Assembly: GCF_018729255.1 (NCBI RefSeq)
Contig: NZ_CP076061.1
Location: forward strand, 744,001 to 808,000
DNA from: Cupriavidus sp. EM10
GTDB lineage: Bacteria > Pseudomonadota > Gammaproteobacteria > Burkholderiales > Burkholderiaceae
DNA: 64,000 bases
Direction of reading: 5' to 3'
Shown: positions 203 to 52,473 of the stretch, one piece after another
Position numbering within the stretch: the stretch's first letter is position 1
How the letters are laid out: each line of letters begins with the position of its first letter
The notes under the pieces: model-generated
What the model was told of the DNA's origin: nothing
The model's database searches: none
Seen by the model: the letters and a program-made list of their open reading frames with translations, nothing else
Made by a program: the position numbers and the translations under genes

Positions 203-2448
203 ATGCCCAATCAGACCCCACCAAAGACCAATCCGTCCGCGTCCAATGTCGGGGCCAGACCACGCCCCAGCACTCTGGCGACAACCCGAGCCAGGACCGC
301 GCTTCGGGCAACAACCAGGACGGTACCTACGAAAAGGCCGTTGCGGACCGGCTTTCCGGGCGCCCCGAGCAGCTGGGCTCGCCCAGCGTCGGCAACGTGG
401 TATCGAACGCCGGCAAGACGCTGACGACCAACCAGGGCCTGCAGATCCCCGAGGACGACGACTCGCTGAAGCTGGGCCTGCGCGGGCCGACGCTGCTGGA
501 AGATTTCCATCTGCGTGAAAAGATTACGCACTTCGACCATGAACGGATTCCCGAGCGGGTGGTGCATGCGCGCGGCGCCGCGGCGCACGGCTACTTCGAG
601 CTGACCGAGTCGATCGAGGACTACACGACCGCCGAGCTCTTCACTCGGGTGGGCGAACGGACGCCGGTCTTCGTGCGCTTTTCGACGGTGGCGGGCTCGC
701 GCGGCTCGGCGGACCTGGCGCGCGACGTGCGCGGCTTCGCCACCAAGTTCTACACGCGCCAGGGCAACTTCGACCTGGTGGGCAACAACATGCCCGTGTT
801 CTTCATCCAGGACGGCATCAAGTTTCCGGACTTCGTGCACGCGGTAAAGCCGGAGCCGCACAACGAGATCCCGCAGGCGGCGTCGGCCCACGACACGTTC
901 TGGGATTTCGTCTCGCTGCAGCCCGAATCGATGCATATGGTGCTGTGGACGATGTCGGGCCGCGCCATTCCGCGCAGCTTCCGGACGATGGAGGGCTTCG
1001 GCGTCCACACGTTCCGGCTGATCAATGCCCGGGGCGAGGCAACGCTGGTCAAATACCACTGGAAGCCCGTCGGCGGCGCCCATTCGCTGGTCTGGGACGA
1101 GGCGCTCAAGATCAACGGCAAGGACCCCGACTTCCACCGCCGCGACCTGTGGGAGTCGATCGAGATGGGCCAGTACCCCGAGTACGAATTCGGCGTGCAG
1201 CTGGTGCCCGAGACCGAGATGCTGAAGCTCGGCTTCGACCTGCAGGACCCGACCAAGATCATCCCCGAGGAACTGGTGCCCGTGAAGCGTATCGGGCGCA
1301 TGGTGCTGGACCGCAACCCGGACAACTTCTTTGCCGAGACCGAGCAGGTGGCGTTCCACCCGGGGCACCTCCTGCCGGGGATGGACTTCACCAACGACCC
1401 ACTGCTGCACGCGCGCCTGTTCTCGTATATCGACACGCAGATCACGCGACTGGGCGGCCCGAACTTCCACGAACTGCCGATCAACCGCCCGCTGTGCCCG
1501 GTGCACAACAACCAACGCGACGGCTTTATGCGGCAGACGATCGTGCAGGGCAAGGAAAGCTACCAGCCCAACTCGGTCAGCGGCGGCTGCCCGTTCCTGG
1601 CCGGCGACAAGGACGCCTATCGCCACTATCCGGCGCCGGCCGAGGACGGCGCGGTCAAGGCGCGCGTGCGCAGCAACACGTTTGCGGATCACTTCTCGCA
1701 GGCCAACCTGTTCTGGCGCAGCCAGTCCGATGTCGAGAAGCAGCAGATCATCGACGCGTACAGCTTTGAGCTGTCGAAGGTGCAGGACCCGGCCATCCGC
1801 TCGCGCGTGGTGGGGCAGATCGTGCATATCGCGCAGGAGCTGGCCGATGGGGTGGCCGGGCAGCTTGGCATTCCGGTGGAGCCAGTCGGGCCAGCGGTGC
1901 AGATCAACGACTACGGCGTGCAGACATCGCCTGCGCTAAGCCTGGATGCCCAGCCCAAGGGCGACATCACGGGCCGCAAGATCGCGGTGCTGGTCCATGA
2001 CGGCGTGGACGACGCGGCGATCCAGTCGCTGCAGGCGCTGGCCCAGGGGATGCGCGCCAATGCGAAGATCGTCGGCCCGCGCGCGACCAGCGTCACCACC
2101 GCAGGCGGTGTGGCGCTGCCCGTGGACTATGCGCTGGCGTCGGTCGGCTCGGTGCTGTTCGATGCGGTCTACGTGCCCGATTGCAAGAATCCGCCCGCCG
2201 ACCCCGACCCGAGGGCGCTGCTGTTCATCAGCGAGGCCTACAAGCACTTCAAGGCGGTGGGGGCCGGCGGCAGCGGCGCGCTGCTGGTGGCCGAGGCCGC
2301 GCGTCGTGCTGGCATCCAGGGCGGCTTCGCGGGGCCGGGCCTGGTGATCGGCAAGAGCGAGGATGCCAAGACGCACCAGGCCTTCCTTGACGCCGTGGGC
2401 GAGCATCGCTGGTGGCAACGGCCGGACGCGCTGAAGATTCCGGTGTAA
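203..2448 (+). CDS. katE: Large-subunit (HPII/KatE-type) catalase, frameshifted near the N-terminus
   Basis: Heme catalase that converts hydrogen peroxide to water and oxygen. Visible landmarks are the distal histidine region (RVVHARGAAAHGYF), the distal asparagine region (DLVGNNMPVFFIQDGIKFPDF) and the heme-ligand tyrosine (RLFSYIDTQITRLGG). A C-terminal flavodoxin/DJ-1-like domain begins near GDITGRKIAVLVHDGVDD. About 748 residues after repair is typical of the large HPII class and excludes a small-subunit catalase. ATG 203 has a good ribosome site (AAAAGGA, 187-193) but is in a different frame from the catalase core. Adding one G to the G4 run at 251-254 joins the two frames and gives a hydrophilic N-terminal tail like that of HPII. 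Without repair the first usable start is GTG 397. A hairpin at 2455-2486 follows the gene. Confidence 0.93.
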
Positions 2449-2454
2449 GCGACG

Positions 2455-2486
2455 GGCTGACCGGGTGCGTTCACGCCCGGTCAGCC
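2455..2486. terminator. Bidirectional hairpin between convergent katE and the udgX-like gene
   Basis: An 11-bp perfect stem (GGCTGACCGGG pairing with CCCGGTCAGCC) closes a ten-base loop. It lies just after the katE stop and overlaps the end of the opposing glycosylase gene. There is no clear T-run, so it may act as an attenuating hairpin rather than a strong intrinsic terminator. Confidence 0.55.
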
Positions 2487-3107
2487 TGCATGGGCGACAT
2501 CCAGATCCAGGTGTGCCAGGCGGGCGGCCTCGCGCAGGCTGGCCACGATCCGGTCCAGCGCCGCATCGCGGGCCTCGGACGAGCGCTGGCGCAGCGCGAA
2601 CGACGGGTGGTACGTGACGATGACCAGGTAGTCGTCGCACGTCACGGGGGCATCCATCATTTGGGATAGGGTGACCCGCTTCCGGTGCAATACCGACCCG
2701 GCCGCAGTGGCGCCGAGCGCGACAATCGCCCTCGGTCGCACCCTGTCGATTTCCCGTTCCAGCCACAGATGGCAGGCCTCCACTTCCAACTGCCCTGGCG
2801 TCTTGTGCAGCCGCCGCTTGCCGCGCGTTTCGAACTTGAAGTGCTTGACGGCATTGGTCAGGTAGACCGCGCTGCGCAGCACGCCGGCCCGCGCCAGCGC
2901 CTCGTCCAGCAGCCGCCCGGCCGGGCCGACGAAAGCCTCGCCCCGCAGGTCCTCGTCGTTGCCGGGCTGCTCGCCTACCAGCATCAGGGGCGCATGGGCC
3001 GGGCCCTTGCCCGGCACCGCCTGCGTGGCGTCGTGCCAGAGGTCGCAGCGGCGGCAGGCGTTCAGGTGCGCCGCGTCGGCTATCGGGATGTCTCGCTTCG
3101 TCGCCAT
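2481..3107 (-). CDS. UdgX-type uracil-DNA glycosylase (family 4-like)
   Basis: DNA repair enzyme of 208 residues in the uracil-DNA glycosylase superfamily. Motif A is GEQPGNDED (residues 45-53), followed by FVGPAGRLLD, and motif B is HPSFALR near the C-terminus. The distinguishing feature is the insertion loop KRRLHKTP (residues 97-104). In mycobacterial UdgX the equivalent KRRIH loop carries the histidine that becomes covalently attached to the uracil-excised DNA; here it would be His101. The protein has exactly four cysteines, with CRRC at 18-21 near the N-terminus, consistent with an Fe-S cluster. I see the UdgX signature directly; covalent chemistry is inferred from the family. It is convergent with katE in a stress-gene neighbourhood. 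Confidence 0.88.
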   Translation of the reverse strand: MATKRDIPIADAAHLNACRRCDLWHDATQAVPGKGPAHAPLMLVGEQPGNDEDLRGEAFVGPAGRLLDEALARAGVLRSAVYLTNAVKHFKFETRGKRRLHKTPGQLEVEACHLWLEREIDRVRPRAIVALGATAAGSVLHRKRVTLSQMMDAPVTCDDYLVIVTYHPSFALRQRSSEARDAALDRIVASLREAARLAHLDLDVAHAG

Positions 3108-3132
3108 GTAGTGCCCGCGGTTGGCGGTGGCG

Positions 3133-3744
3133 TCAGCTCAGGTTGAGCGTGCGCGCCGACGGGTCAGCCGCAGACCGGTCGCCGATCCCGTCGTCGGGAT
3201 CGCCGCGGCGTTGCACGCGGATATGGTTCTCGACGTCCTGCACGCCGAAGACGGCATCCGCCATATCCTCGATCAGGCGCTTCTGGTAGCGGTCCTGGAC
3301 CATGCCGGACAGTGTCACGACGCCTGCCGCGACCTCCACCGACACCTCGGACACGTCGATGCCGTCGTGCATCGTCAGGCGCTCGCAGATATCGTCCCGG
3401 ATCAGGTCGTCCGCGCGCTGGTAGTCCTTGGGGCCGGGGTAACGACCTGCGCCGATGCGGGCCGAGTGCACCGGTTGCGTAGGATGCGCGCGGTAGCCGG
3501 GGTCTCCCGGATACAGCCGCTGGGCGCCGTTGAACGACTGGCCGCCGCTGTCGCTGCTGCCGAAGTAGCCGGCGCCGCCGTAGCCCGGCTCGTTCTGCCG
3601 CTGCGCGCGGTCCTGATGCGCCTTGGCGCGCCAGCTTTCCGCGCCCGAGGGCTCCTGGAACTGCGGGCCGGTATCGCGTACCGCATCCCGCGTCACTTCG
3701 TTGTCTGTCCGCTCATGCCGGTGCCGGCGCAGAAAGTCGAACAT
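3133..3744 (-). CDS. BON-domain protein with long disordered N-terminus
   Basis: 203 residues. The first 110 or so are hydrophilic, Gly/Pro/Tyr-rich and apparently disordered (GYGGAGYFGSSDSGGQS). The C-terminal third is a BON domain: DLIRDDICERLTMHDGID, VSEVSVEVAAGVVTLSGMV and a DAVFGVQDVENHIRV-type end. BON domains bind membranes or lipids and occur in stress-related proteins such as OsmY. No signal peptide is visible (it starts MFDFLRRHRHER), so a cytoplasmic location is likely. It lies between the glycosylase and the flavoprotein on the same strand. A second BON-like gene is at 5889. Confidence 0.85.
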   Translation of the reverse strand: MFDFLRRHRHERTDNEVTRDAVRDTGPQFQEPSGAESWRAKAHQDRAQRQNEPGYGGAGYFGSSDSGGQSFNGAQRLYPGDPGYRAHPTQPVHSARIGAGRYPGPKDYQRADDLIRDDICERLTMHDGIDVSEVSVEVAAGVVTLSGMVQDRYQKRLIEDMADAVFGVQDVENHIRVQRRGDPDDGIGDRSAADPSARTLNLS

Positions 3745-3818
3745 GATCCGCTCCTGGTGGTTGCACTGATGTTTGCAGATAGGCAGCCAGGCGCAAGAAA
3801 CGTGCCCCGGGAACGGGG

Positions 3819-4958
3819 CTACTTCGGGCGTGGCGGCTTCAGATCGTCGCCGACGGCTGGCAGCTTGCCCTGCCGCCGTAGCGTGACCGCCTGCGCCAGG
3901 GCCGCGCCGGCATTCTCCACTTCCTTCTGCACGCCGACGTCCTCGTCGAGGTCACGATGCGAGGTGGCATAGGGCGAGTAGTACCCGATAAACCGGTCCA
4001 GTTGCGCCTGCGGGCCGGCCTGGACGAGTCCCATCCAGTTCAGCCAGTCGCCCAGCGACCGGCGCACGCCCTCGATGCCCGCAACGTCGCCATGTACGAC
4101 CACGCCGAAGACGCGCCCCGCCAGATGCTTGGGATAGTCCCAGCCCTGCAGCTCAAGCGCCTTGGCCTCGGGCACCTTCTTGCCGTGGGTGCTGCTGGGG
4201 TCGGGGTTGCCGCCATCGGCGCAGACCAGCCGGTCCATCATCAGCTTCAGCGGGCTCGACACCTGGTACCAGTAAGTGGGCGTGACGATCAGCACGCCAT
4301 GCGCGCGCACCCAGCGCGGATAGATGTCGGCCATCCAGTCGTTGACCTGTCCCAGCGAATGGTTCGGGTAGCAGCTGCAGGGCCAGTGGCATAGCGGCAT
4401 AGACGTCGACACGCACCCCTTGCAGGGATGGATACGCAGGTCATGGTCGGATGCCAGCAGGCTCAGGTCCAGCGTATCGACGGTCATGCCCAGTGCCTCC
4501 ATGCGCGCCCGGGCGATGCCGGCCAGGCGCCAGGACTTGGACATTTCCCCGGGACACGTGTAGTCGTTTCTGGCCGCGCCAACCACCAGCAGCACGCGCG
4601 ACGGTCCGCCAGCATCGTCATGCTCGCGCTGCGCGGCGCGTATGGCGTCGCGCGACTGGCGCCATTCGACGGACAGATCGTAATCGGGGTCCGCCGCGCC
4701 GGGGCCCGCTTTCTCGGTCACGGGCGCCTTGCGGCCTTCGTGATAGGCGTCCCAGGCGATGGCTTCGAGCCGCTCGATCGCATCGTCTTCGTTCCGGTAG
4801 GCTGGATCGTGGAAGCGCGCCCGGAAGCGCTGGCGAAAGACGTCGCGGGGCATTTTCTCGGTGACCTGCCCCTTGCGCACGTCCTGCGCGGCGTCGCTAT
4901 TCGTGCGGGCTTCCTTGCCGGCTGCGTAGCTGGCATCCGGGCGTTGGGAATCCGTCAT
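3819..4958 (-). CDS. Flavodoxin-fold NAD(P)H-dependent FMN reductase family protein with cysteine cluster and N-terminal extension
   Basis: 379 residues. The core from about residue 120 is a flavodoxin-like fold: strand VLLVVGAARNDYTCPGE with a phosphate-loop-like turn, then GVLIVTPTYWYQVSSPLK, the usual FMN-contact strand of this family. Between them is a tight cysteine cluster (PCKGC, then CHWPCSC, spacing C-x2-C-x7-C-x3-C-x-C) resembling the compact motif of iron-sulfur flavoproteins. The first 120 residues are a charged extension that looks like a small ChaB-like or general-stress segment (RQRFRARFHDPAY, AIERLEAIAWDAYHEGRK) and is unusual for the reductase family. The reaction and partner are unknown; a redox role in the surrounding stress island is inferred. 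Confidence 0.78.
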   Translation of the reverse strand: MTDSQRPDASYAAGKEARTNSDAAQDVRKGQVTEKMPRDVFRQRFRARFHDPAYRNEDDAIERLEAIAWDAYHEGRKAPVTEKAGPGAADPDYDLSVEWRQSRDAIRAAQREHDDAGGPSRVLLVVGAARNDYTCPGEMSKSWRLAGIARARMEALGMTVDTLDLSLLASDHDLRIHPCKGCVSTSMPLCHWPCSCYPNHSLGQVNDWMADIYPRWVRAHGVLIVTPTYWYQVSSPLKLMMDRLVCADGGNPDPSSTHGKKVPEAKALELQGWDYPKHLAGRVFGVVVHGDVAGIEGVRRSLGDWLNWMGLVQAGPQAQLDRFIGYYSPYATSHRDLDEDVGVQKEVENAGAALAQAVTLRRQGKLPAVGDDLKPPRPK

Positions 4959-4990
4959 GTATCGGCTATCCGTGATTATTGCGGCGTGGC

Positions 4991-5589
4991 TTATCGTCCA
5001 CCGCCCCCGGCCGCGCCACCCGCCGCGCCGCCTCCCGCGCCCCCACTCACTCCGCCTCCCACTCCGCCTCCCACTCCGCCTCCCACTCCGCCTCCCACTC
5101 CACCACCCATGCCGCCCGACGTCCCGCCGCCCATGGTGCCGCTACCGGTACCGCCGGTCCCCGTCGTGCCGCTGCCTGACGTGCTACCCGGCATGCGTCC
5201 GCCCGGCGTGGTGCCTGTTCCCGGCGGCATGCCGGTCGGGGTATCGGTACGGCCATCCCCGGGTTCATGCCCGACGTGCCGGGCATCCCGGGCGTTCCGG
5301 GTGTGCCCGGGGTGCCTGGGGTGCCTGGGGTGCCTGGGGTGCCAGGGGTTCCCGGCGTTCCCATCATTCCTGGCGTCGAATTCGTACGGCCGCGTTGGCC
5401 GGCCCGGTTGCCCGCCGAACTGGAACCCGTGCCGCCGGGCATCGTGGTCGCACCGGGGGACGTGGCGCCCGTGCCACTGGTGCCGCCACCGGCGGTGCCG
5501 GTCCCGCCAACGCCTGTTCCCGTCTGCGCATAGGCGGCGCCAATGCAAAGCGCCGCTGCTGTCATCGCCATCAGCTTGCTGGATCTCAT
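4991..5589 (-). CDS. Secreted collagen-like / glycine-rich repeat protein, frameshifted
   Basis: Starts at ATG 5589 with a GGGAGA ribosome site and a clear signal peptide (MRSSKLMAMTAAALCIGAAYAQ). It continues as a low-complexity Gly/Thr/Ser region, a run of about a dozen Gly-X-Y triplets (PGT repeated, collagen-like), a Gly/Thr linker and a terminal GGGV array. The two halves are in different frames. Adding one base to the C4 run at 5257-5260 (G4 on the coding strand) joins them into one protein of about 199 residues ending in a poly-Gly tail. Function is unknown; such proteins are often surface or matrix components. The repeats make the gene prone to length change. Confidence 0.7.
5053..5100 (-). 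repeat. Four perfect 12-bp tandem repeats encoding GGGV
   Basis: The plus-strand unit CGCCTCCCACTC occurs four times in a row without mismatch (5053-5064, 5065-5076, 5077-5088, 5089-5100), with degenerate copies on both sides. On the coding (minus) strand it gives the GGGV array of the secreted protein. The unit is a multiple of three, so copy-number change preserves the frame. Confidence 0.9.
5285..5360 (-). repeat. 9-bp tandem repeats encoding the collagen-like Pro-Gly-Thr tract
   Basis: The plus strand carries degenerate 9-base units around GTGCCTGGG, including three consecutive near-identical copies at about 5316-5342. On the minus strand they encode repeated Gly-Thr-Pro triplets, a collagen-like Gly-X-Y pattern. 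Confidence 0.75.
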
Positions 5590-5888
5590 GCCTGGTCTCC
5601 CAACATGGGTGGATGAAGGATGTGCGGATGCGCTCGCAACGGCCGTGCCTGCACGGTGGCGCTGTGCCTGCCGCGCACCTTGGCGCACCTTGGCGCACGT
5701 GCGGCGCACTCTGCCGGCAAGGGCGATGGCCGTACCTGGCAGTAAAACCTCCCCGTCGTCGTCAGATGTACGCGCACGGGCTGCATCCCCCGCGCGTTTC
5801 CGCCATCCCCGAAAGCGTGCCGTAGCGCCTGGCACGCCAAATGCGTCGCTTGGGACCCTTCAGGATCCATCGCGCAAGGAGCACGACC

Positions 5889-6455: not shown

Positions 6456-6529
6456 GGTATCCGGCAGGGATCGACAGGCACGCTTGTTGCGCCACGAGGG
6501 GTTCCGATCGCACACCACAGGAGAATGCA

Positions 6530-9544: not shown

Positions 9545-9562
9545 TTCCGGCCGCCTTCGAAG

Positions 9563-9602: not shown

Positions 9603-9618
9603 CACAGGTGCTGGCGTG

Positions 9619-14243: not shown

Positions 14244-15673
14244 ATGGTGTACCAGGATCTCGCCCTCTACATCGATGGGGAATTTGTCAAGGGAGGCGAC
14301 CGGCGCGAGCAGGACGTCATCAACCCGGCCACCCAGGAACTGCTTGGCAAGCTGCCCCATGCCAGCAAGGCCGACCTGGACCGTGCGCTGGCCGCCGCCC
14401 AGCGCGCCTTCGAAACCTGGAAGAAAACGTCGCCGCTGGAACGCTCGGCCATCCTGCGCCGTGTGGCGGAACTGACGCGTACGCGCGCCAAGGAAATCGG
14501 CCGCGATATCACGCTGGACCAGGGCAAGCCGCTGGCCGAAGCGGTGGCCGAAGTCACCATCTGCGCCGAGCACGCCGAATGGCACGCCGAAGAATGCCGC
14601 CGGATCTACGGCCGCGTCATCCCCCGCGCAACCCGAACGTGCGCCAGATCGTGGTGCGTGAGCCAATCGGCGTGTGCGCCGCGTTCACGCCGTGGAATTT
14701 CCCGTTCAACCAGGCCATCCGCAAGATCGTGGCGGCCATTGGCGCCGGTTGCACGCTGATCCTGAAGGGCCCTGAGGATTCGCCCAGCGCCGTGGTGGCG
14801 CTGGCCCGCCTGTTCCACGATGCAGGCCTGCCCCCGGGCGTGCTGAACATCGTCTGGGGCGTGCCCAGCGAAGTATCCACTTACCTGATCGAATCGCCGA
14901 TCGTCCGCAAGATCTCGTTCACCGGTTCGGTGCCGGTGGGCAAGCAACTGGCCGCGATGGCCGGCGCCCACATGAAGCGCGTGACGATGGAGCTGGGCGG
15001 CCATTCGCCCGTGCTGGTGTTCGACGATGCCGATATCGAGCCGGCCGCCGAGATGCTGGCCCGCTTCAAGCTGCGCAATGCCGGCCAGGTGTGCGTGTCG
15101 CCGACGCGCTTCTACGTCCAGGAAAAGGCGTATGACCGCTTCCTGGCGCGCTTTACCGAGGTGATCGGCTCGATCAAGGTCGGCAACGGCCTGGACGACG
15201 GCACGCAGATGGGTCCGCTGGCCCACGAGCGCCGCATTGCGTCGATGGAACAGTTCCTGGACGACGCAAACCACCGCGGCGGCAAGATCGTGGCCGGCGG
15301 CTCGCGCATCGGTGACAAGGGCTTCTTCTTTGCCCCGACCGTCGTGACCGACCTGCCCGACGATGCCAGGCTGATGGTGGACGAGCCGTTCGGCCCGGTG
15401 GCGCCGGTGACCCGCTTCAAGGACACCGAGGAAGTACTGCGCCGCGCCAACAGCCTGCCGTTTGGCCTGGCGTCCTACGTGTTCACCAACTCGCTGAAGA
15501 CCGCCCATCAGGTGTCGAACGGCCTGGAAGCGGGCATGGTCAACATCAACCACTTCGGCATGGCGCTGTCCGAAACGCCGTTCGGCGGCATCAAGGACTC
15601 CGGTATCGGCAGCGAAGGCGGCCAGGAGACCTTCGATGGCTACCTGGTGACCAAGTTCATCACGCAGGTCTGA
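14244..15673 (+). CDS. NAD(P)-dependent aldehyde dehydrogenase (succinate-semialdehyde type), frameshifted
   Basis: Oxidises an aldehyde to the acid. ATG 14244 has ACAGGAGAC upstream. Visible parts are [20 protein letters not shown], the cofactor region [27 protein letters not shown], the catalytic glutamate in [12 protein letters not shown] and the catalytic cysteine in [12 protein letters not shown]. The class resembles GabD-like and alpha-ketoglutaric-semialdehyde dehydrogenases, but the substrate cannot be read from sequence alone. The reading frame breaks after RRIYGRVIP. Adding one C to the C5 run at 14621-14625 gives [20 protein letters not shown] and restores a 476-residue protein. 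Transcription appears independent of its neighbours. Confidence 0.92.
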
Positions 15674-15734: not shown

Positions 15735-16927
15735 TTATTTCCCGCCCTTCGCCTTCCGGTAGTCCTCGGCGAACGTCTTCCACTGCGCCAGCGACACATC
15801 GCGCCCATGCCGGGCCAGCCGCAGCGCCATCGATTGCCAGCGCCCGCCCGCGGCGTAGTCCTGCAGCTTCTCTATCCGGTCCGCCGCCTGATGGCCGCAG
15901 CCACGCAGGTGCGCCCAGGCGGCGGCACGCGCCATGGTGGCCAGCACGTCGAGCAGCGCCGTCTTGTCGCGGCAATGCGCCAGGTCCACGCGATCGGTGG
16001 TGGGCTGGAGGCTCTTGACGACGAACGACTCGCGCCTGCCCAATGCCACATACGACAGCAGCGCCGGCGACGCGGCCTGCATGATCTGCTGGGACGTCAC
16101 CACGCGCTGGGCATCGCTGCCCCAGTGTGGCTGGTGATGCGCCATGTCCACCCAGGCGCTGGGCGCCGCGCGCTTGATATCGACCAGCCGGCGCGACGTG
16201 GGCGTCTGCATGTCATGGGCCAGCACGACGTAGCGCTCCAGCCCGAGGCTGCCCACGCCGGCCACGCGGCGGGCGGCGTCTTCCGCGACAAACCGGTGCC
16301 CGTGATGATCCTGCTGCGAGTAGACGGCGAGGATACGCGCGGCACGCTCGCGCTGCGCGCGATCCGCACGCATGGCGTGCCGGTCGAGATTGAGCCGCCG
16401 GCGTCCGCCGCGCAACGTGGTGCGCGACGCCAGCAGCGACCCGCGCCGGCGTCGCTTTACCTGCCGCAGCAGCGTGGCCACCAGCCCGGTGGCCGTGGCG
16501 CGTTCGATCCAGCGCGGCTTGCCGGTGCGCAGGGTGTGCGTGTATTCGCCCAGCATGTTGGCGCAGGCCACGCGGGCGTCCGCTTCGGACAGCCCATACT
16601 GGTGCGCGGCCACCAGCACGCTGGACAGCATGCGCACCGCATCCACGGTGAACGGCGCCACCAGCGCATCGTCGAAATCGTTCAGGTCGAAGTAGACCAG
16701 TCCGTTGTCGCCCTTGAACGACCCGAAATTCTCCACGTGCAGGTCGCCGCAGACATAGGTGTGGGGGCGCCGAGACCGATGTCGTCCTGCAGCGACGCCG
16801 CATAGAGATGGTTGGTGCCGCGAAAGAACGCAAACGGCTCGGCCGCGATGGCGGCAAGCTTGAGGGTCAGCCGGTCGGGATCACGGCCATGGTTGTAGAG
16901 CAGGATGCTTTCGGTGACGGCGTGCAT
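15735..16927 (-). CDS. DUF2252 family protein, frameshifted
   Basis: After repair about 397 residues. The family has a kinase-like fold of unknown function. Hallmarks are PFAFFRGTNHLY near residue 35, then CGDLHVENFGSFKGDNGLVY and FDLNDFDDALVAPF, which resemble the catalytic and metal-binding loops of aminoglycoside-phosphotransferase-like folds. The N-terminal part (from ATG 16927) and the rest are in different frames. Adding one base to the G5 run at 16763-16767 yields GAPHTYVCGDLHVENFGS, which is exactly the family pattern. It is convergent with the aldehyde dehydrogenase and lies 53 bases downstream of the oxidase operon on the same strand. Confidence 0.85.
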
Positions 16928-18056: not shown

Positions 18057-18721
18057 TCATCCCCGGCCGCAGATGTAGTTGACGAGCTCGGGCGTCAGCC
18101 AGGCCAGCGCGGCCAGCAGCACGGCCCAGACTGCCAGCAGGAAGTGCCAGTAGCGCGCGCAAAGCCCGATGCGCACCTGCGTGCGCGTGCCGCTGCCCCG
18201 GTCGAACGCGACGAACGCGAATCCCACCAGCCCGCCGATCATGTGAAGGCCGTGCATCGCCGTCAGCAGGTAGAAGAAGCTGCCGGCCGGGTTGCCGGCC
18301 GGCACCACATGCGATCCATACAGCGCCGCCCACGCCCAGAGCTGCGATCCCACGAACGCCAGCGCGCCCAGTCCGCCCAGCCGCAGCGCCACGCGCGCGC
18401 GCGCCATCCGGCCGGCACGGGCCGCCCGCGACGCCAACGCCATCGCCACGCTGGCCGTCGCCAGCAACGCCGTCGACAGCCAGACCTGCCACGGCAGGGC
18501 GATGCGGTGCCAGTCCGGGCTGTCCATGCGCATGATGTAGGCCGCCAGGAACAGCGTGAACAGCGCCGTCACCACAACCATGAACACCCACAGGCCCGTG
18601 CTGCCCGGCGCGCGCTGGCCGTGGCCATGCATGGCGTCGCCACCCGCACCGCTGCCCGGTGAATCGGGGATACGCGGAACACGCCGGCGCCTGCGTCGGC
18701 TGCCATCGGATCGGCGTTCAT
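18057..18721 (-). CDS. Second cytochrome c oxidase subunit III-like protein, frameshifted near the N-terminus
   Basis: ATG 18721 overlaps the subunit I stop (ATGA), which strongly suggests the start. The frame then differs from the conserved body. Adding one base to the G4 run at 18666-18669 connects MNADPMAADAGAGVFRVSP to the body and gives 221 residues. The body shows GLWVFMVVVTALFTLFLAAY, YLLTAMHGLHMIGGLVGFAF and YWHFLLAVWAVLLAALAW, i.e. the MHGLHMIGG and YWHF signatures of subunit III. An internal start at the MHGHG codon (near 18629) is the alternative if no base is missing. Having two subunit III homologues in one operon is notable. Confidence 0.82.
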
Positions 18722-27751: not shown

Positions 27752-29061
27752 ATGTCCTCCTCCAGCAGTTCCGCCGGGGCAATGCGCGCAGAAGGCGGCC
27801 ACGCCGCCCGCCCGCTGACCGGCCAGGACTACAAGACGCTTGCCCTCGCAGCACTGGGCGGTGCGCTTGAGTTCTACGATTTCATTATTTTGTCTTTTTC
27901 GCCAAGGTCATTGGCCAGCTGTTCTTTCCGGCTTCGGTGCCGGACTGGCTGCGCCTGCTGCAGACCTTCGGCATTTTCGCCGCCGGCTACCTGGCGCGTC
28001 CGCTGGGCGGCATCATCATGGCCCACTTCGGCGACCTGCTGGGCCGCAAGAAGATGTTCACGCTGTCGATCCTGCTGATGTCGGTGCCGACGCTGCTGAT
28101 GGGCCTGCTGCCCACCTACGCGACGATCGGCCTGCTGGCGCCGATGCTGCTGCTGGTGCTGCGCATCCTGCAGGGCGCCGCCGTGGGCGGTGAAGTGCCG
28201 GGTGCCTGGGTATTCGTGTCCGAACACGTGCCCAAGCGCCATATCGGCTATGCCTGCGGCACGCTGACCGCAGGCCTCACGGCCGGCATCCTGCTGGGTT
28301 CGCTGGTGGCCACCGGCATCAACGCGATCTTCGATCCGCAGGAACTGCTGTCCCATGGCTGGCGCGTGCCGTTCGTGCTGGGCGGCATCTTCGGCGTGGG
28401 GTCGATGTACCTGCGCCGCTGGCTGCACGAGACGCCGGTGTTTGCCGAACTGCAGCAACGCAAGGCGCTGGCCGCCGAGATGCCGCTCAAGGCCGTGGTG
28501 CGCGATCATCGCGGCGCCGTGCTGATCTCGGTGCTGCTGACGTGGATGCTGTCGGCTGGCATCGTGGTGGTGATCCTGCTGACCCCCACCTACCTGCAGA
28601 CGCTGTTCGGCTTCGACGCCCGCACGGCCCTGGTGGCCAACAGCGCGGCCACGCTGTGCCTGTCGATCGGCTGCGTGATCGCCGGCGTGCTGGCCGACCG
28701 CATCGGTGCCCGCCTGACGCTGACCATCGGCGGCGCGCTGCTGGCGGCCACGGCGTACCTGCTGTACACCACCATCGGCGCCCGCCCTGACCTGCTGCTG
28801 CCGCTGTACGCGCTGGCCGGCTTCTTCGTGGGCACCATCGGCGCCGTGCCTTACGTGCTGGTGCATGCCTTTCCGGCGCAAGTGCGATTCTCGGGGCTGT
28901 CCTTTTCGTACAACGTCTCGTACGCGATCTTCGGCGGCCTGACGCCGGTCATCGTCTCGCTGATGCTGAAGACCGACAAGCTGGCCCCGGCGCACTACGT
29001 GGTCGGCGTCTGCATCATGGGCATCGTCACCGCGCTGTTCGTGCGCAAGCGCGAGGCCTGA
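27752..29061 (+). CDS. MFS transporter of the metabolite:H+ symporter (ProP-like) family, frameshifted
   Basis: After repair about 436 residues with twelve helices. The N-terminal ALAALGGALEFYDFII and then FGIFAAGYLARPLGGIIMAH, GDLLGRKKMFTLSILLM and GGEVPGAWVFVSEHVPKR are MHS-family signatures (osmolyte and carboxylate symporters). The frame breaks just after EFYDFII. One extra T in the T4 run at 27888-27891 restores FIIFVFFAKVIGQLFFPA and joins the halves. Unrepaired, the C-terminal 374 residues would need a start at 27937, which would remove helix 1. Start at ATG 27752 (MSSSSSS) with only a weak ribosome site. Substrate unknown. Confidence 0.88.
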
Positions 29062-29149: not shown

Positions 29150-30204
29150 TCATGCCGCCCGGCGATACTGCCGGAAAAACTGCCACATCATCCAGCTTGC
29201 GTCAGGGCCGACGTCGCTGTGGTACTGCACGCTGGCGTCGCCGCCGCTCCAGGCATGATCGAGGCCCGCCACTTCCACCAGCCGCACGACGTCGCGATTC
29301 CAGCGGCCGAAGCGGGCTTCGCGATAATCCCCTGCTCCATCGACGGCGCGTCATTGGCGCATTCGAGACGCTCGTCGGCGCGTTCGCTCAGCCCGTTGTA
29401 GGTCAGGAACTGGCGCGCCAGCAGGCGGCCGTTGACCGGGTTTACCGCATCGTCGGTCATGCCATGCACGACGATGGCCGGCATCTCGGGACCCCCTGGC
29501 GTCACGCCGGCCGCATCGAGCAGCAGCGCCGGCTCCAGGTCGGTACCCTGCCGCATCGCCTTGAGCCCCGCGCCCGGATTGCCGGCCGCGCCAATCACGA
29601 CGCCCGAGTGCAAACCCACGGCCGCCACCTTTTCGGGATAGCGCAGCGCCACCACGGCCGCCATGGCCGCTCCCGCGGACAGGCCTGCCAGATAGACCTC
29701 GCCGGTGCGGACGTCCGGCCGGCTGGCCAGTTCGTCGATCAGCATGGCCACGGCCTGCGCCTCGCGTCCGCCCTCGCCGTCACCCAGGTCGAACCACTGC
29801 CAGCAGCGGTGCACGGACCGGCGCAGCGGCTGCTGCGGATAGGCCACCATGAACCCCTCGCGCTCGGCCAGCGCGTTCATGCGCGTGCCGGCGGCCAGGT
29901 CTTCGGGCGTTTGCTGGCAGCCGTGCAGCATCACCACCAGCGGCAATGCGCCCTTGGCGCCAGACGGAATATAGAGACGATAGGAAAGCTGCGGCACCAG
30001 CTCGCCTGGCAGCGGTGCCAGGCCCAGCTTGTGCGATTGCCACGAACCGGGCAGGGCCGGCGCGGGGCTGCGCAGCCGGCGTGCGGCTGGCTGGGCTGGA
30101 TCGAAACGCCCCAGCCAGGAACGAATTTGCTTCGCGGCCCGGTATTGCGAGCGACCGAATTGTCGCCACTGCACATCCCAGGCCGGAGACAGGCTTTTGG
30201 CCAT
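29150..30204 (-). CDS. PHB depolymerase-family esterase, frameshifted near the C-terminus
   Basis: After repair 351 residues. Alpha/beta hydrolase of the LpqC/PhaZ-like esterase family, acting on polyhydroxyalkanoate or similar esters. Features are YRLYIPSGAKGALPLVVMLH, GCQQTPEDLAAGTRMN, the nucleophile elbow VYLAGLSAGAAMAAVVAL (G-L-S-A-G) and VVHGMTDDAVNP with the catalytic aspartate. The catalytic histidine region lies beyond the frame break. One base added to the C4 run at 29329-29332 gives QGDYREARFGRWNRD and then VAGLDHAWSGGDASVQYH, supplying the missing histidine. Start ATG 30204 is preferred (AGGAG seven bases upstream) over ATG 30222. Confidence 0.9.
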
Positions 30205-30484
30205 ATGAAGACTCCTGCTCATCTAGCGATGGGTCTCCTCCTGTATTTGTGCGACGCAGCATAACACAGCCGACGTGATGGATTGCCGCTATTGTCTGCA
30301 AGAAGCAACATGAAATTTGGAAACAAAAATCTCCTTGGTCGGCGGCCTTCACCCGAACGCGTCAGCGCTTTGGGAAAAAACTTAGCTCTTGCCTACGAAA
30401 GAATGCAAAACGCGCATAGATCGCAGCGTTTTGCCAGAACTTATACTGGGCAGCATCCCAGCCCACCGGAAGCACCACGCGGCG
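30205..30484. other. Divergent intergenic region, esterase and FNR-type regulator
   Basis: 280 bases, AT-richer than its flanks (TTGGAAACAAAAATC near 30317). It should contain the promoters of both genes. No FNR box or extra gene is evident. Confidence 0.45.
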
Positions 30485-31227
30485 ATGCCCCTCGACCGTC
30501 CCGGCACAAGCGCCCCTTCCTGCAGCCTTTGCCCGTTCCGCCCGGCGTGCCGCCATGCCTGCGGCGATAGCGCCCTGCACGCGACGGCGCCGCTTGCGCC
30601 AGCCCGGATACGGTTGAGAGCCGGAGATGTGCTCTATGCGCAGGGCCGCCCGAAACTTTCGGTCTTCCCGGTGCAAGCGGGTGGCCTGAAGCAGATCTAC
30701 GAGTCGCGCCTGGGATGGCGTCAGGTGAACGGCTTTTTCATTGCGGAGACGTCTGCGGCCTGGAAGCGAACGAACCCGCCACCCACACTGCCAGCGCCGT
30801 CGCGCTGCAAGACACCGAATGCTGTACCGTCCCCATTGAAGCGTTGCGTGGCAGCCTTGCCGATCCGGGCATGCGCGCCGCCATCCTGGCCAACCTGCGC
30901 AGGCAGGCCGACCGGCAGGCGGAACTGCTCGTGGCCATCGGCTCGATGAAGGCCGCTCAACGGCTGGCCATGCTGTTGCTGGACCTGTCCGCCGAACAGG
31001 CCAGGCGTGGCGTTGGGAAAGGGGAATTGACGCTCGCGATGACACGGGACGACATCGCCAGCTACCTCGGCCTGACGCTCGAAACCGTGTCGCGCCTGCT
31101 GTCGCGTTTTCGCTCGGTCGGCTTGATCACGGTACGGCATCGCATGCTGCGGATCGTCGATCCCGAAGGACTTGCCGACGTGTATGCCGACGCGGACCGC
31201 ATTGCCCGGCGCGGCCCGGGAGACTGA
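30485..31227 (+). CDS. FNR-type Crp-family oxygen-responsive regulator, frameshifted
   Basis: After repair about 247 residues. The N-terminus holds CSLCPFRPAC, the exact C-x2-C-x5-C spacing of the FNR [4Fe-4S] cluster (residues 13, 16, 22). The fourth ligand is expected in ALQDTECCTVPIEAL, matching FNR Cys122. The cyclic-nucleotide-like beta-roll is LRAGDVLYAQGRPKLSVFPV. The helix-turn-helix MTRDDIASYLGLTLETVSRL, then LSRFRSVGLITV, has the E-x2-S-R recognition of TTGAT half-sites. The frame breaks after RQVNGFF: one base is missing near the T5 run at 30734-30738 or the GG at 30745, and repair gives GFFIAGDVCGLEA. Start ATG 30485 is inferred. Confidence 0.88.
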
Positions 31228-32121: not shown

Positions 32122-33491
32122 TTACCTCCGACCGTGACCGAAATGAGCGCCGCCAGCACCGCCGCCACCGCCAAAGTGCCCGCCACCCGCGTTGCCACCG
32201 CCATGGAAGCCGCCGCCTCCGCGCTCCGGCATCGCGCGTTGTGGCGCTTGCCCGCCGCCTGCGCGCTGCAGCCCGCTGCCGCCGCGTTCGGTCTGCTGAC
32301 GCATGCGGTCGCCATTGCCGGCATCGTGAAAAGCGTTGGCGTGATTGCTGTCGCGCGCACGGTTGCGGGCTTCCGTCTGATCGGCGCGCTGGCGGCTGGC
32401 CCCCGCCGGACGCGGGTTCTGCCCACCCCCTGACGATTGACGCCCGGCGAGCCGTGCCCTTGGATCGACTGGCCGGTCCGCCCCTGGAATGACTGTGCGG
32501 CGCGGTCGCGTGCGGCATCGCGCTGGTTCTGCGCGCCGCCTGGCCGTTGCGGATTCTGGACCCCGCCACCGCCCTGCCCCAGCCGCTGGCCGCCGGCCTG
32601 GCCCGGCGGCGGACGATTGGCCAGCGCCTGCTGCCGCTGCGCATCGAAGCGGTTGGCGACGTTGGGATTGTTATACGGCACGTTGCCGCGATTGGCGGGA
32701 TTGTGCTGCCAGTTCACGTTGGCGCGGTTCACGTCGAGCCGCTGGTTCACGTTGATATTGTTGTAGCGGTTGACGTTGATGTTGACGTCATGGCCGCCCC
32801 AGTTGAATCCGCCCCACATCGAATTCACGGCCGCCACACCCAGGCCGAATCCGATGCCCGCGACCAGCGACGTCGCGAACACCGAACCGGGCGGCGGCGG
32901 ATAGTAGGCGGGCGGATAGGCGGGATAGGGCCAGGTGCCGTAGACCACGGTGGGGTTGTACGCCGGCACATACACCACCTGCGGGTTGGCGGGTTCGATC
33001 TGGACGATGGTCGTGCCGCCGGTCTGCTGCGTTACCACCTTCTGCTGTTCTGTGGTCTTCAGCGTGCCGGCCTTCTGCGCCTGCACGCGCAGCCGCTGCA
33101 CCGAGTCCATCACGTCATCGGGCTGGGCCAGGAACGCATCGCCCACCGACTGCACCCACTGCGGCTGCCGCCCCATCATGTCCATGACCGACGGGAACGC
33201 CACCAGCGACTGCACGCTGGGGTCCCATGGCTCGCCGGCCACCGCCTTGGTTGCGGCATCGCCCGACAGGCTCTGGTTCGACTTCGACCACTGCGCGGCA
33301 GCGGCCACGTCGGCGGGATACGTCGAAGCCATCAGCACCTGCGACAGCAACGCATCGGGATAAAGCGCCACCGGCGCCAGCAGCTGGTCGAGATGTGGCG
33401 GGTCGAGCTTTGCCTGGGCCATCGCACCGCCTGCGGTGGCAAGCAGGGTCAGGCCGAGCAGCCAGGCCAGGATTTGTCGCACGCGCAACAT
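32122..33491 (-). CDS. DUF3300 exported protein with glycine/asparagine-rich tail, frameshifted
   Basis: After repair 456 residues. Signal peptide MLRVRQILAWLLGLTLLATA, DUF3300 core (LDQLLAPVALYPDALLSQVL, MASTYPADVAAAAQWSKSNQ, VVYVPAYNPTVVYGTWPYPA), then an Asn/Gln/Gly-rich tail. The frame breaks after SPGVNRQG. One base added to the C5 run at 32426-32430 gives RQGGGQNPRPAG and continues to the GGGGFHGGGNAGGGHFGGGG terminus, the usual end of this family. ATG 33491 is preferred over GTG 33497 because GAGGGAG precedes it. Probably an envelope protein; role unknown. Confidence 0.9.
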
Positions 33492-33570
33492 GATCACTCC
33501 CTCAATGACGAAAAAGGACCGCTACACCTGCCTTCCGGAAACTGGCCGGGCATTACCCAAGCTGGATGAC

Positions 33571-46373: not shown

Positions 46374-46399
46374 GGCAAATCCTTATGCGACGGTCCCGG

Positions 46400-47563
46400 T
46401 CAGGACTTGGCGGCCGGCGCCGAAGCGGCGGCCGGAGCGGAGGCTGGCGCAACGCCCGCTTGTGCCGCGGTGGCTTCGGTGGCCTTCACCTTGGCGCCAG
46501 GCCGCACGAACTGCAGGCCTTCGACGATGACACGGTCGCCGGCCTTGAGCCCTTCGGTCACGAGCCAGCTGGTGCCGATGGTGCGGTCGGTCTTGAGCAC
46601 GCGCAGTTCCACTTCATTGTTGGCGTTGACCACCAGCGACGTGGGCTGCCCCTTCAGGTCGCGGGTCACGCCACGCTGCGGTGCCAGGATGGCCGATTGC
46701 CTCACGCCCTCAGCCAGGCGGGCGTGCACGAACATGCCGGGCAGCAGCTCGGCGCGCGGGTTCGGAAATACGGCGCGCAGCGTCACGGAACCGGTACTCT
46801 GGTCCACCGCCACCTCCGAGAATTCCAGCCGCCCGGCTTCCTTGTAGGTGCTGCCGTCCTCGAGTTGCAGCATCACCTTGGCCGCGTTGGCGCCGGCGCC
46901 CTGCAGCTTGCCGTCGGCCAGTTCCTTGCGCAGGCGCAGGATCGATGACGACGGCTGGGTCACATCCACGTAGATCGGGTCCAGCTGCTGGATCGTGGCC
47001 AGCGCATTGGCCTGCCCGTTGGTGACCAGCGCGCCTTCCGTGACCAGCGAACGGCTGATGCGGCCCGAAATCGGTGCCAGCACGCGCGTGTAGCGCAGGT
47101 TGATGTGCGCCTGGTCCACGGCCGCCTTGGATTGCAGGTACGACGCCTGGGCTTCGGCATATTGCTGCTTGCTGACCGCTTCGTCGCCAACCAGGCGGCC
47201 GTAGCGCTCCGCCAGCAGCTTCGACGATGCGAGCGTGGCTTCGGCGCTCTTCGCCGTGGCTTCGTAGGTGGACGGATCGATCTGATAAAGCTGCTGACCC
47301 TGCTTGACGTCGCTACCTTCGACGAACAGGCGCTTCTGGATGATGCCGTTGACCTGCGGGCGAACTTCGGCGATCCGGTACGGCAGCGTACGACCCGGCA
47401 GGGACGTGTCGAGCGTGACAGTTTCGTCCTTCAGCGTGACAACTTTCACTTCAGGCGTCTGGGCCGCGGGGGCTTCGTTCTTCTTGCCGCAGGCCGTCAG
47501 GGCGGTCACGGCAAGAGCCAGCATGCCTGGAATCAAAGCACGCCTGGCGCGCATTGCTTGCAT
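46400..47563 (-). CDS. RND efflux periplasmic adaptor (AcrA/MexA-like)
   Basis: 387 residues from ATG 47563. Lipobox LTACGKKNEA after helix ALIPGMLALAVTALTAC. The membrane-fusion-protein layout is clear: lipoyl half (SLPGRTLPYRIAEVRPQVNG), alpha-hairpin (AKSAEATLASSKLLAERYGR), second lipoyl half (RYTRVLAPISGRISRSLVTE) and beta-barrel (LEFSEVAVDQSTGSVTLRAV). First gene of the three-gene operon. No TetR regulator is visible upstream. Confidence 0.94.
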   Translation of the reverse strand: MQAMRARRALIPGMLALAVTALTACGKKNEAPAAQTPEVKVVTLKDETVTLDTSLPGRTLPYRIAEVRPQVNGIIQKRLFVEGSDVKQGQQLYQIDPSTYEATAKSAEATLASSKLLAERYGRLVGDEAVSKQQYAEAQASYLQSKAAVDQAHINLRYTRVLAPISGRISRSLVTEGALVTNGQANALATIQQLDPIYVDVTQPSSSILRLRKELADGKLQGAGANAAKVMLQLEDGSTYKEAGRLEFSEVAVDQSTGSVTLRAVFPNPRAELLPGMFVHARLAEGVRQSAILAPQRGVTRDLKGQPTSLVVNANNEVELRVLKTDRTIGTSWLVTEGLKAGDRVIVEGLQFVRPGAKVKATEATAAQAGVAPASAPAAASAPAAKS

Positions 47564-48352
47564 AGCGATTTCCTCGAGGATGAAACGGAATTGGTCTTAT
47601 TGGACCCGGCCAAAGCCGGGCGGGCGCCACGGCGCGCGTGGACGCAATTGGCGTGCCTGCACCAGGCACGTATCGAATAACGGCTCAACGGATTGTCGCC
47701 ATGGGCCCCTGCTTTCGCCGGCTTCGCCGGCCTGGAGGAAAACTGAACACCGGCCGCGCCGCGCGCGCGTCCGGCACAGGGCCGCCCGTTCGGACAACCC
47801 TGCTCCCCGTACTCTCAAATGTCCTACCCCAATCTTCGATTATCGGGACTATTGTTGCGTGCGTAAGGCCGTGCTCCGATCTGGGCGGGCATCGTCTTGT
47901 CGATCGACAACGATAATCGTTTTCACCGATATCTGCAGACGCTCAGCTGTCTTGTGGCGTCTTTCACACAACCATCGGTCTTCCGTATCCGGCTGCTCCC
48001 TCCTCCAAGGTAAGCCGCCGATACTGCAATGCAGCATTTGAGCTATCCGCGTAGCAAACAGTTCAATAAGCATGCTGCCTATTCTGGTCGCCGGCCGATA
48101 TGCTACCAGTTGGAACATATTTCAGGATGACAGAAAATTGGCTGTAATGAAGTGAAATAGTCGATTTGGCGGGGTAGATTCGAAAAATTGCGCGCAAATC
48201 GGAACGAGCGGCCCGGTAGCATCCGCTCATGAGACAGTGTTTTGCGTAGATGGGACAGTTACCAGCGCGCTGGGCATTGCCCATTGTGGCCAAATGAAAA
48301 ACCCCGCCGTGAGGCGGGGTTGGTCTTCCAGGCTTCGTCGGTCACTCGATCG
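47564..48352. other. Long intergenic region upstream of the RND operon
   Basis: 789 bases without a convincing gene, GC-lower toward the right. It must hold the RND operon promoter, but no TetR-family regulator gene is present. At 48231-48260 the near-repeats GAGACAGT and GGGACAGT suggest a possible insertion-sequence end fragment, which I could not confirm. A strong hairpin lies at 48301-48320. Confidence 0.5.
48299..48321 (-). terminator. Hairpin terminator after the small exported protein gene
   Basis: ACCCCGCC (48301-48308), loop GTGA, GGCGGGGT (48313-48320). On the minus strand it is followed by TTTTTCATTT, giving an intrinsic terminator for the gene at 48353. Confidence 0.8.
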
Positions 48353-48742
48353 TCATGCACCATCGAGGAAACGATTCCGGGGTCCAAGGCGGGTGCCTAG
48401 CATCGGACCACTCCAGCGCATGTCTCCGCGATAGGCTGATGTCCCGACGCGGTCCGGTTCCATGGCCGCACCCGGCGCAGGTTGGTAGGACGGCGCAGGT
48501 GATTGATATGTCTGCTGTTGCGGCGCCAGGTTTTGCCTCGTCGAGCTATCGGCGCCCTGGGTGTACGGATCGAACTTATCCCCGGCGCGGGCGCCACTGG
48601 TGTTGGAATCGTACGTGCCGCCGCTTGCAGCGCCTTGGGTATAGGGATCGCGTGGACCCGGGGTCGTTTGGGCGATCGCAGTCAGTGAAATCAGGGCAAG
48701 TGCCCCGGCTGCAATCACACTTCGGGGTCGAATCATCGGCAT
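48353..48742 (-). CDS. Small exported repeat-containing protein of unknown function
   Basis: 129 residues from ATG 48742, with GGAGGTGAAGCC upstream. Signal peptide RPRSVIAAGALALISLTAIA followed by AQTTPGP. The mature part is hydrophilic and carries two copies of the motif DPYTQGA (PRDPYTQGAASGG and FDPYTQGADSST), then a Gln/Pro-rich stretch and a basic end. No recognised family. Periplasmic or secreted location likely. Confidence 0.7.
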   Translation of the reverse strand: MPMIRPRSVIAAGALALISLTAIAQTTPGPRDPYTQGAASGGTYDSNTSGARAGDKFDPYTQGADSSTRQNLAPQQQTYQSPAPSYQPAPGAAMEPDRVGTSAYRGDMRWSGPMLGTRLGPRNRFLDGA

Positions 48743-48948
48743 GGCTTCACCTCCGGAAAGCGGTGGGACAGCAGGCTTGCCGTCCCTGTAGCCTTCATTG
48801 AGCGAAAGGCGTGCCGGCAAAATTATGACTTCTTCAGCACAATCCGAGGGGGTTTGACCGGGTTAGCTCTTGAGCTTTTACAAGCTCAGGTAAGGGCTGC
48901 ACCGGAGCGCTGGCGCGGCGCCAAACACAAATCGTGCGCGCAAAGCAA

Positions 48949-48976
48949 AACCCCCAAGCTTTTGGGCTTGGGGGTT
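48949..48976 (-). terminator. Intrinsic terminator of the rRNA operon
   Basis: AACCCCCAAGC (48949-48959) pairs with GCTTGGGGGTT (48966-48976). On the minus strand the hairpin is followed by TTTTGCTTTG, just beyond the 5S gene. Confidence 0.85.
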
Positions 48977-48987
48977 CTGGGTATAAG

Positions 48988-49104
48988 AGCCTGGCGATGA
49001 CCTACTTTCACACGGGTAGTCCGCACTATCATCGGCGCAAAGTCGTTTCACGGTCCTGTTCGGGATGGGAAGGGGTGGTTCCAACTCGCTATGGTCACCA
49101 GGCA
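48988..49104 (-). rRNA. rrf: 5S ribosomal RNA
   Basis: 117 bases. On the minus strand it starts TGCCTGGTGACCATAGCGAG and ends GTCATCGCCAGGCT, with the typical TGGAACCACCCCTTCCCATC region inside. It lies in the expected position after 23S. The ends are judged from complementary termini and are good to a few bases. Confidence 0.93.
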
Positions 49105-49225
49105 TGAGGGGTTGCCGGGCTGACAGGTGTCAGCGCGGCGAATCGGGGTGTAGTAAGGGGGTTGTGTTGTATGCCACATGGCACACGCGGACTCGTCGTC
49201 CCACCAGGTCAAACACACTGGTTAT

Positions 49226-52106
<2,881 letters not shown>

Positions 52107-52398
52107 CTATAACGAGTGAGTCTAACGTTTCCGTCCTACCCTCTGGCTACAGGTCTGAGTTCTCGCGTTTGTGCCGTATTCCAAGTCATCTTTCGATCAC
52201 TTAAATACATTTTGGTTGATACAATCACAACCCGGTATCGCGCTTGTACTGCAGCGTCTCATCAACGCCTCGCGACACCTTTACTACATCCCATATTGTT
52301 AAAGAACAGCCGAGGCGAATTGCATTCGCGCTCGATGGCAACAGCCAAAGAGAAACACTCGTGCGAGCGCTTTTCTTTAGCTACAACCCCAAGGTAAG
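52107..52398. other. 16S-23S spacer segment between tRNA-Ala and 23S
   Basis: 292 bases with a boxA-like CTGTTCTTTAACA on the minus strand (52296-52308) ahead of 23S, consistent with rRNA antitermination. No additional gene. Confidence 0.65.
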
Positions 52399-52473
52399 TG
52401 GTGGAGGATGACGGGATCGAACCGACGACCCCTGCTTGCAAAGCAGGTGCTCTCCCAGCTGAGCTAATCCCCC
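52399..52473 (-). tRNA. tRNA-Ala (anticodon TGC), one base short in the variable loop
   Basis: Cloverleaf on the minus strand: acceptor GGGGGAT with ATCCTCC, D arm GCTC/GAGC, anticodon arm CCTGC-TTTGCAA-GCAGG (anticodon TGC) and encoded CCA. The length is 75 rather than the usual 76. The variable region reads GGTC, where five bases (GGGTC) would be expected after GCAGG. The missing base is in the C4 run at 52429-52432 on the plus strand, the same pattern as in the broken protein genes. Confidence 0.95.

What the first reader, a model, noticed from the sequence alone, without database searches (positions are those of the whole stretch)
203..52473. Ten single-base losses, nearly all in short homopolymers
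Nine protein genes (katE, the repeat protein, aldehyde dehydrogenase, DUF2252, the second subunit III, MHS transporter, PHB-depolymerase type, FNR type, DUF3300) and tRNA-Ala each lack exactly one base. The probable sites are runs at 251-254, 5257-5260, 14621-14625, 16763-16767, 18666-18669, 27888-27891, 29329-29332, 30734-30746, 32426-32430 and 52429-52432. Each protein gene from its best start to its stop has a length of 3n+2, and one added base restores the family sequence. All are deletions, none insertions. This points to systematic under-calling of homopolymers rather than decay. All protein-gene cases fall in the first 33 kb, which may reflect read depth or assembly patches.
Basis: partly seen in the sequence, partly recalled or inferred. 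Interest (0 to 1): 0.8.

Follow-up and report, generated by a model that had tools for sequence, protein, structure and literature searches.

The report
Homopolymer under-calls in a PacBio-only assembly
The ten 'broken' genes are most likely intact in the living bacterium: the published sequence, made only from older PacBio long reads, drops one letter in many short runs of identical letters, so many of this genome's listed pseudogenes are probably not real.

Summary
In detail: all ten sites lack one base against intact copies in relatives or, for tRNA-Ala, in the genome's three other rRNA operons. It is an assembly artefact, not biology. The clearest control is internal: the four rRNA operons miss bases at different conserved G/C runs (0/345 for runs of 3, 3/103 for 4, 10/39 for 5, 8/15 for 6), none of them over-called. 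With several relatives as yardstick, sampled coding DNA shows 26 one-base losses to 5 gains in 178 kb, versus 2 to 4 in 245 kb of relatives. A noisier one-relative scan gave 21 to 2 in 120 kb against a background of 11 to 6 in 166 kb. The only D-Ala-D-Ala ligase gene is split by such a loss; mutS and mutL are intact. Its hint of patches within the first 33 kb does not: losses occur in both flanks, on chromosome 1, and in this window's own 16S and intergenic DNA.

The parts
143..2448 (+). katE (long catalase); assembly one base short at the G run 251-254, N-terminal part
   Evidence: 1 deletion near codon 36-39 vs G010 and G011; catalase domains in the relative's protein; span 3n+2
4991..5589 (-). 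predicted exported collagen-like (GTP-repeat) protein; one base short at 5257-5260
   Evidence: two window frames match the halves of the single open frame in G022 L089:5051-5788; one-base gap vs G010 and G022
14244..15673 (+). aldehyde dehydrogenase; one base short at 14621-14625
   Evidence: 8 of 8 relatives; Pfam Aldedh
15735..16927 (-). DUF2252 protein; one base short within 16763-16771
   Evidence: 6 of 6 relatives; Pfam DUF2252
18057..18721 (-). second cytochrome c oxidase subunit III; one base short at 18666-18669
   Evidence: 8 of 8 relatives at nucleotide level; Pfam COX3
27752..29061 (+). MHS-type MFS transporter; one T short at 27888-27891
   Evidence: 8 of 8 relatives; run T5 in the three relatives that passed the strict flank filter, T4 here; Pfam MFS_1/Sugar_tr
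29150..30222 (-). PHB-depolymerase-type esterase; one base short within 29329-29337
   Evidence: 8 of 8 relatives, 7 in the stricter; Pfam Esterase_PHB
30485..31227 (+). Crp/FNR-type regulator; one base short near 30734-30740
   Evidence: 5 of 5 relatives; Pfam HTH_Crp_2, cNMP_binding
32122..33497 (-). DUF3300 protein; one base short at 32426-32430
   Evidence: 6 of 6 relatives, nucleotide gap placement split 3 to 3; C-terminal frame ends as in the relative; Pfam DUF3300
52399..52473 (-). tRNA-Ala(TGC) in the rRNA operon; G run 52429-52432 is 4, other copies 5
   Evidence: three other own operons and 10 relative copies; ARAGORN and Rfam
52626..54155 (-). 16S rRNA; run 54015-54018 is one base short against own copy C1a and 10 of 10 relative copies (own copy C2b is short too)
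49226..52106 (-). 23S rRNA; the window copy keeps full length at eight conserved G/C runs that are one base shorter in one or more of the other three own copies

Best explanation
The ten losses are consensus errors in a PacBio RS II-only (P6-C4, HGAP v2) assembly of Cupriavidus sp. EM10. The consensus step under-calls short homopolymers by one base: rarely at G/C runs of 4, in about a fifth to a quarter of runs of 5 and about half of runs of 6, and less clearly at A/T runs. Each under-call inside a gene makes an apparent frameshift. In the cell these genes are most probably intact. Shown here: the losses, their direction, run context, spread over both chromosomes, uneven distribution among near-identical rRNA copies, and the one-platform origin. 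Inferred: that the true DNA carries the longer runs, since reads could not be inspected.
For: rRNA copies: G/C runs of 4, 5, 6 short in 3/103, 10/39, 8/15; G/C run 3 in 0/345; A/T runs of 3-5 in 0/362; none of these longer. Sampled coding DNA with several relatives: 26 losses to 5 gains in 178,093 bp, against 2 to 4 in 244,989 bp of relatives as targets. One-relative scan: 21 to 2 in 120,371 bp against 11 to 6 in 165,663 bp of control. Conserved runs of 3 or more in sampled DNA: 19 shorter and 4 longer in G000, 3 shorter and 1 longer in controls; G/C5 4/23 and G/C6 2/3 short versus 0/22 and 0/3. G/C runs of exactly 6: 4.8 per 100 kb versus 9.4-10.2 in four relatives. Single-copy ddl split into two frames. 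Precedent for the same platform: PMC4687164 (passages).
Against: No reads were inspected. Seven gains were also called (5, 2); the two in the window and the pair-mate look like 5' extensions, the other four were not examined. The one-relative scan has a real background: 11 losses and 6 gains in 165,663 bp of control, so perhaps 8 of its 21 losses are not errors. 11 of the 41 triaged sites sit at runs of 3 or less. G/C runs of 7 or more are not consistently rarer than in relatives. No protein gene was hit in about 22 kb of coding DNA in the second half of the window, so mild clustering is not excluded. Depth of about 146x should normally give a better consensus; why so many errors remained is unexplained.
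Confidence: 0.97

Rival explanations
1. Real gene decay: the genes are true pseudogenes carrying one-base deletions.
For: The frames really are broken in the deposited sequence, and the authors list 895 pseudogenes.
Against: Decay should give gains, stops and larger deletions too; gains are few. Protein identity around the shifts stays as in intact genes, e.g. aldehyde dehydrogenase 94-100%. The only ddl and conserved runs in several of the four rRNA operons cannot plausibly decay this way.
Confidence: 0.01
2. A mismatch-repair-deficient mutator lineage with real homopolymer slippage.
For: Slippage at homopolymers is the known signature of lost mismatch repair (recalled knowledge).
Against: mutS and mutL match full length in open frames. 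Slippage gives gains as well as losses. rRNA copies would have to lose bases in conserved 23S and 16S runs.
Confidence: 0.005
3. Programmed frameshifting or transcriptional slippage restores the products.
For: Sites lie in runs, as slippage sites do.
Against: Relatives encode the same proteins in one open frame at these points. Losses also hit tRNA, rRNA and probably intergenic runs.
Confidence: 0.005
4. Same artefact, but concentrated in local low-depth or patched stretches such as the first 33 kb of the window.
For: Nine protein-gene losses in the first 33.5 kb (29.1 kb of coding DNA), none in the confirmed genes of the rest (13.1 kb, plus 8.8 kb). At the background-corrected rate (0.138 per kb) the Poisson chances are about 0.02 for nine or more and 0.05 for none (hand arithmetic; one search gave 0.05 and 0.03 with an uncorrected rate). 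The rpoB and cell-division clusters also had few.
Against: Losses also in both flanks, on chromosome 1 at 500-540 kb and 3.09-3.27 Mb, and in 16S, tRNA and probably intergenic runs of this window beyond 33 kb.
Confidence: 0.1

Closest known systems
Clostridium autoethanogenum PacBio RS II genome and its Illumina correction (PMC4687164; passages seen)
   Same: One-base losses in homopolymers mostly longer than 4, apparent frameshifts in needed genes, same platform, one direction
   Different: About 240 in 4.35 Mb of 31% GC DNA and corrected with reads; here an estimated 600-850 in coding DNA of 6.66 Mb at 65% GC, no reads inspected
Nanopore systematic indel errors described with Homopolish (PMC8011154; passages seen)
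   Same: Homopolymer indels cause frameshifts and excess pseudogenes; detectable from related genomes
   Different: Different platform
Gene-fragmenting errors treated by Kastor (PMC12007338; passages seen)
   Same: Most indels are false deletions, peaking after runs of 4-5
   Different: There mostly A/T runs; here the rRNA losses are all at G/C runs

Membership tests
Long-read consensus homopolymer under-calling | Losses exceed gains | tested here: met
   26 to 5 in G000 vs 2 to 4 in relatives as targets; 21 to 2 vs 11 to 6 in the one-relative control
Long-read consensus homopolymer under-calling | Losses sit in homopolymers and rise with run length | tested here: met
   (0/345, 3/103, 10/39, 8/15 for G/C 3-6); 30 of 41 sites near a run of 4 or more vs 8%
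Long-read consensus homopolymer under-calling | Near-identical repeats (rRNA operons) differ by run length, differently in each copy | tested here: met
   one substitution between own copies inside the rRNA and tRNA genes; 16S compared in 3 of 4 copies; only runs of 3 or more in the window copy were scored
Long-read consensus homopolymer under-calling | Spread over the genome, including essential genes | tested here: met
   about 6-7% of the genome was sampled
Long-read consensus homopolymer under-calling | Single long-read platform without short-read polishing | tested here: met
   PMC8444968 whole text names PacBio RS II and HGAP v2 only
Long-read consensus homopolymer under-calling | Reads or independent sequencing show the longer run | not testable with these tools
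Genuine pseudogenisation | Mixture of lesion types and relaxed constraint | tested here: not met
   one-base losses dominate; protein identity of the broken genes as in intact neighbours
Mismatch-repair mutator | Broken mutS or mutL | tested here: not met
   both open and over cut-off
Programmed frameshift | Shift site conserved in relatives | tested here: not met
   relatives read through in one frame

The most novel reading that the evidence does not exclude
A small minority of the losses, for instance in the repeat protein or DUF3300, could be true length variants in a mixed population, so that the assembly hides real homopolymer phase variation among hundreds of artefacts.
Probability: 0.03. 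Interest if true: 0.45.

Novelty: not a real feature. Interest (0 to 1): 0.12.

Why it matters
The deposited EM10 genome carries 895 annotated pseudogenes, of which a large share is probably false (inference). It is also one of the one-per-species genomes held by the search tool used here. Gene-loss, metabolic or pseudogene studies that use it would be misled: it would appear to lack a working D-Ala-D-Ala ligase and shikimate kinase, among others. The rRNA-copy comparison is a quick, read-free test for such errors in any closed genome with several rRNA operons.

Tried and rejected
A plain blastn gap list mixed intergenic differences and misplaced gaps, so frameshift-aware alignment replaced it. 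An intrinsic coding-frame HMM found four of the window's nine protein losses plus a short-flagged call at 253, and also flagged a normal gene overlap (43234); it was not used for counts. The stretch L101 is strain-specific and gave no orthologues. L102 was not tested against orthologues. One search was an earlier version without the codon-position filter and showed many single-supporter events in spurious frames.

Triage. In one search, 7 of 26 losses were left out of the 41-site list: window 22596, 27747 and 48744, downstream flank 1537 and 13154, C1 534102 and 3315749. They have only two supporters or lie in probable 5' extensions; 27747 is just before the MHS start, and 3315749 is at residue 23 of a 431-residue ORF whose EF-Tu domain begins at 45. 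Of the 19 kept, one (up20 11642) has one contradicting relative. From, 20 of 21 losses were kept; one of these (C1 3133590) lies in a spurious ORF within 23S rRNA and three (3185903, 3245528, 3254812) probably lie upstream of the true start. katE and the repeat protein were added and 42/44. By design, 18 of 21 multi-relative sites and 12 of 20 one-relative sites lie near a run of 4 or more (recount).

Changed on checking. An earlier extrapolation pooled without background (902-944). After the one-relative control, background-corrected rates are about 0.14 and 0.11 losses per kb, that is roughly 600-850 in 86-90% of 6.66 Mb (hand arithmetic). This is the same order as the 895 pseudogenes, not a match. 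My confidence did not need to change because the rRNA comparison is independent of it. Decay, mutator, programmed shift and local patches were considered and rejected or down-weighted (see rivals).

Full report
What the window is. The window is contig C2 744001-808000 of a four-contig genome of 6,658,510 bases. A paper search turned up Cupriavidus sp. strain EM10 (PMC8444968, whole text read). Its chromosomes and plasmids are 3,607,341, 2,510,418, 327,127 and 213,624 bp, the lengths of C1-C4 here. It was sequenced on PacBio RS II (P6-C4) and assembled with HGAP v2; no short reads are mentioned. The authors report 5,273 CDSs and 895 pseudogenes among 6,248 genes. It is a sewage-sludge isolate picked on nickel plates.

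Observation. I aligned intact proteins of up to eight relatives to the window with a frameshift-aware protein-to-DNA aligner. Eight of the nine protein genes show one single-base loss at the site given, with no covering relative contradicting. katE rests on two relatives and did not reach the stricter lists. The ninth, a collagen-like repeat protein, is too divergent for the automatic scan, but its two window frames match the two halves of the single open frame of G022. tRNA-Ala has a G run of 4 where the other three rRNA operons and ten relative copies have 5. All nine gene spans are 3n+2. Exact placement is uncertain by a few bases at DUF2252 and the esterase, and for DUF3300 three of six nucleotide alignments place a two-base gain instead, with the same frame effect.

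Internal control. The rRNA operons of one genome should be near identical. Inside the rRNA and tRNA genes I found one substitution between own copies, but many one-base run differences. I scored runs of 3 or more in the window copy whose length is the same in at least four relative copies. Own copies are short at G/C runs of 4 in 3/103, of 5 in 10/39 and of 6 in 8/15; at G/C runs of 3 in 0/345 and A/T runs of 3-5 in 0/362; none of these is longer. Three A/T sites where relatives have 1-2 and all four own copies have 3-4 are longer; being alike in all copies they look like species differences. Three of the eight run-6 cases are one 16S site (53493-53497) short in all three copies compared, which could also be a species difference. 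The fourth 16S was not compared because its match stops at C1:3320000. Relatives' copies differ from their own majority too: 44 short and 22 long of 2,580 at length 3, 7 and 0 of 642 at 4, 0 and 1 of 172 at 5, 2 and 0 of 69 at 6; these mix several species.

Spread over the genome. Losses supported by at least two relatives, in stretches from both chromosomes, number 26 against 5 gains in 178,093 bp of coding DNA, versus 2 against 4 in 244,989 bp when relatives are the targets. A 160-kb stretch of C1 compared with one relative gave 21 losses and 2 gains in 120,371 bp. The matched one-relative control gave 11 losses and 6 gains in 165,663 bp, so that scan is noisier and perhaps 8 of its 21 losses are background. 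Corrected rates of about 0.14 and 0.11 per kb extrapolate to roughly 600-850 losses in coding DNA (hand arithmetic), the same order as the 895 pseudogenes. No strong event was seen in window 54.5-64 kb, at C1 540-560 kb, or within the genes of the rpoB cluster.

Run context. Of 41 triaged losses, 30 lie within 8 bases of a run of 4 or more, against 8% of random positions, and 40 near a run of 3 or more, against 41%. Strictly conserved runs of 3 or more are shorter 19 times and longer 4 times in G000, and 3 and 1 times in controls; G/C5 4/23 and A/T5 4/26 short versus 0/22 and 1/20. G/C runs of 6 are half as common as in four relatives; runs of 7 or more show no clear difference. A plasmid stretch 99.2% identical to a C. 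pauculus plasmid shows ten one-base losses and two gains, and against pMOL28 eleven and two.

Essential genes. The D-Ala-D-Ala ligase gene in the cell-division cluster is split at residue 222 of 327 (4 of 4 relatives). Searched in its own genome it appears as two half matches; no match reaches the cut-off, and the next best has 43 bits. That this ligase is needed for peptidoglycan is established knowledge. YchF carries two losses and a shikimate kinase one, in the one-relative scan. rpoB and ftsZ are intact, as are mutS and mutL, which argues against a mutator.

Losses also occur in both 20-kb flanks and on C1, and within this window in 16S, tRNA-Ala and two probably intergenic runs beyond 33 kb. 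No protein hit in about 22 kb of coding DNA has a Poisson chance near 0.05, and nine or more in 29 kb near 0.02, at the corrected rate: weak clustering at most. Raw depth was about 146x, so low depth overall is not the cause.

Precedent. PMC4687164 (passages) describes the same under-calling with PacBio RS II: about 240 erroneous deletions in Clostridium autoethanogenum, 207 of 243 discrepancies in runs over five. PMC8011154 and PMC12007338 (passages) describe like errors in other long-read assemblies. The kind of error is known; what is added is its diagnosis in this genome without reads.

Verdict. A real observation with an ordinary, artefactual cause. What remains unproven is what the reads show.

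Noticed in passing
window 53493-53497 (16S): G run of 5 in all three own 16S copies compared, 6 in 12 of 12 relative copies: consistent under-call or a true species difference.
   Followed up: partly
window 52310-52382; L105: One chromosome-1 rRNA operon (C1a) has a different spacer between tRNA-Ala and 23S, so the genome has at least two spacer types.
   Followed up: no
L153 (G000:C4:1-20000): The smaller plasmid carries a cnr nickel-resistance region and Tn3 transposase 96-99% identical to pMOL28 and a C. pauculus plasmid, in line with isolation on nickel.
   Followed up: partly
L101 (G000:C1:1500001-1520000): A 20-kb stretch of chromosome 1 with practically no match in four close relatives: a strain-specific island.
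   Followed up: no
window 4991-5589 (-): Predicted exported protein with a collagen-like GTP repeat, divergent between close relatives.
   Followed up: no
window 48356-48822 (-): Hypothetical gene beside the 5S rRNA with a frame difference from three relatives at 48744, not in a homopolymer; cause unclear.
   Followed up: no
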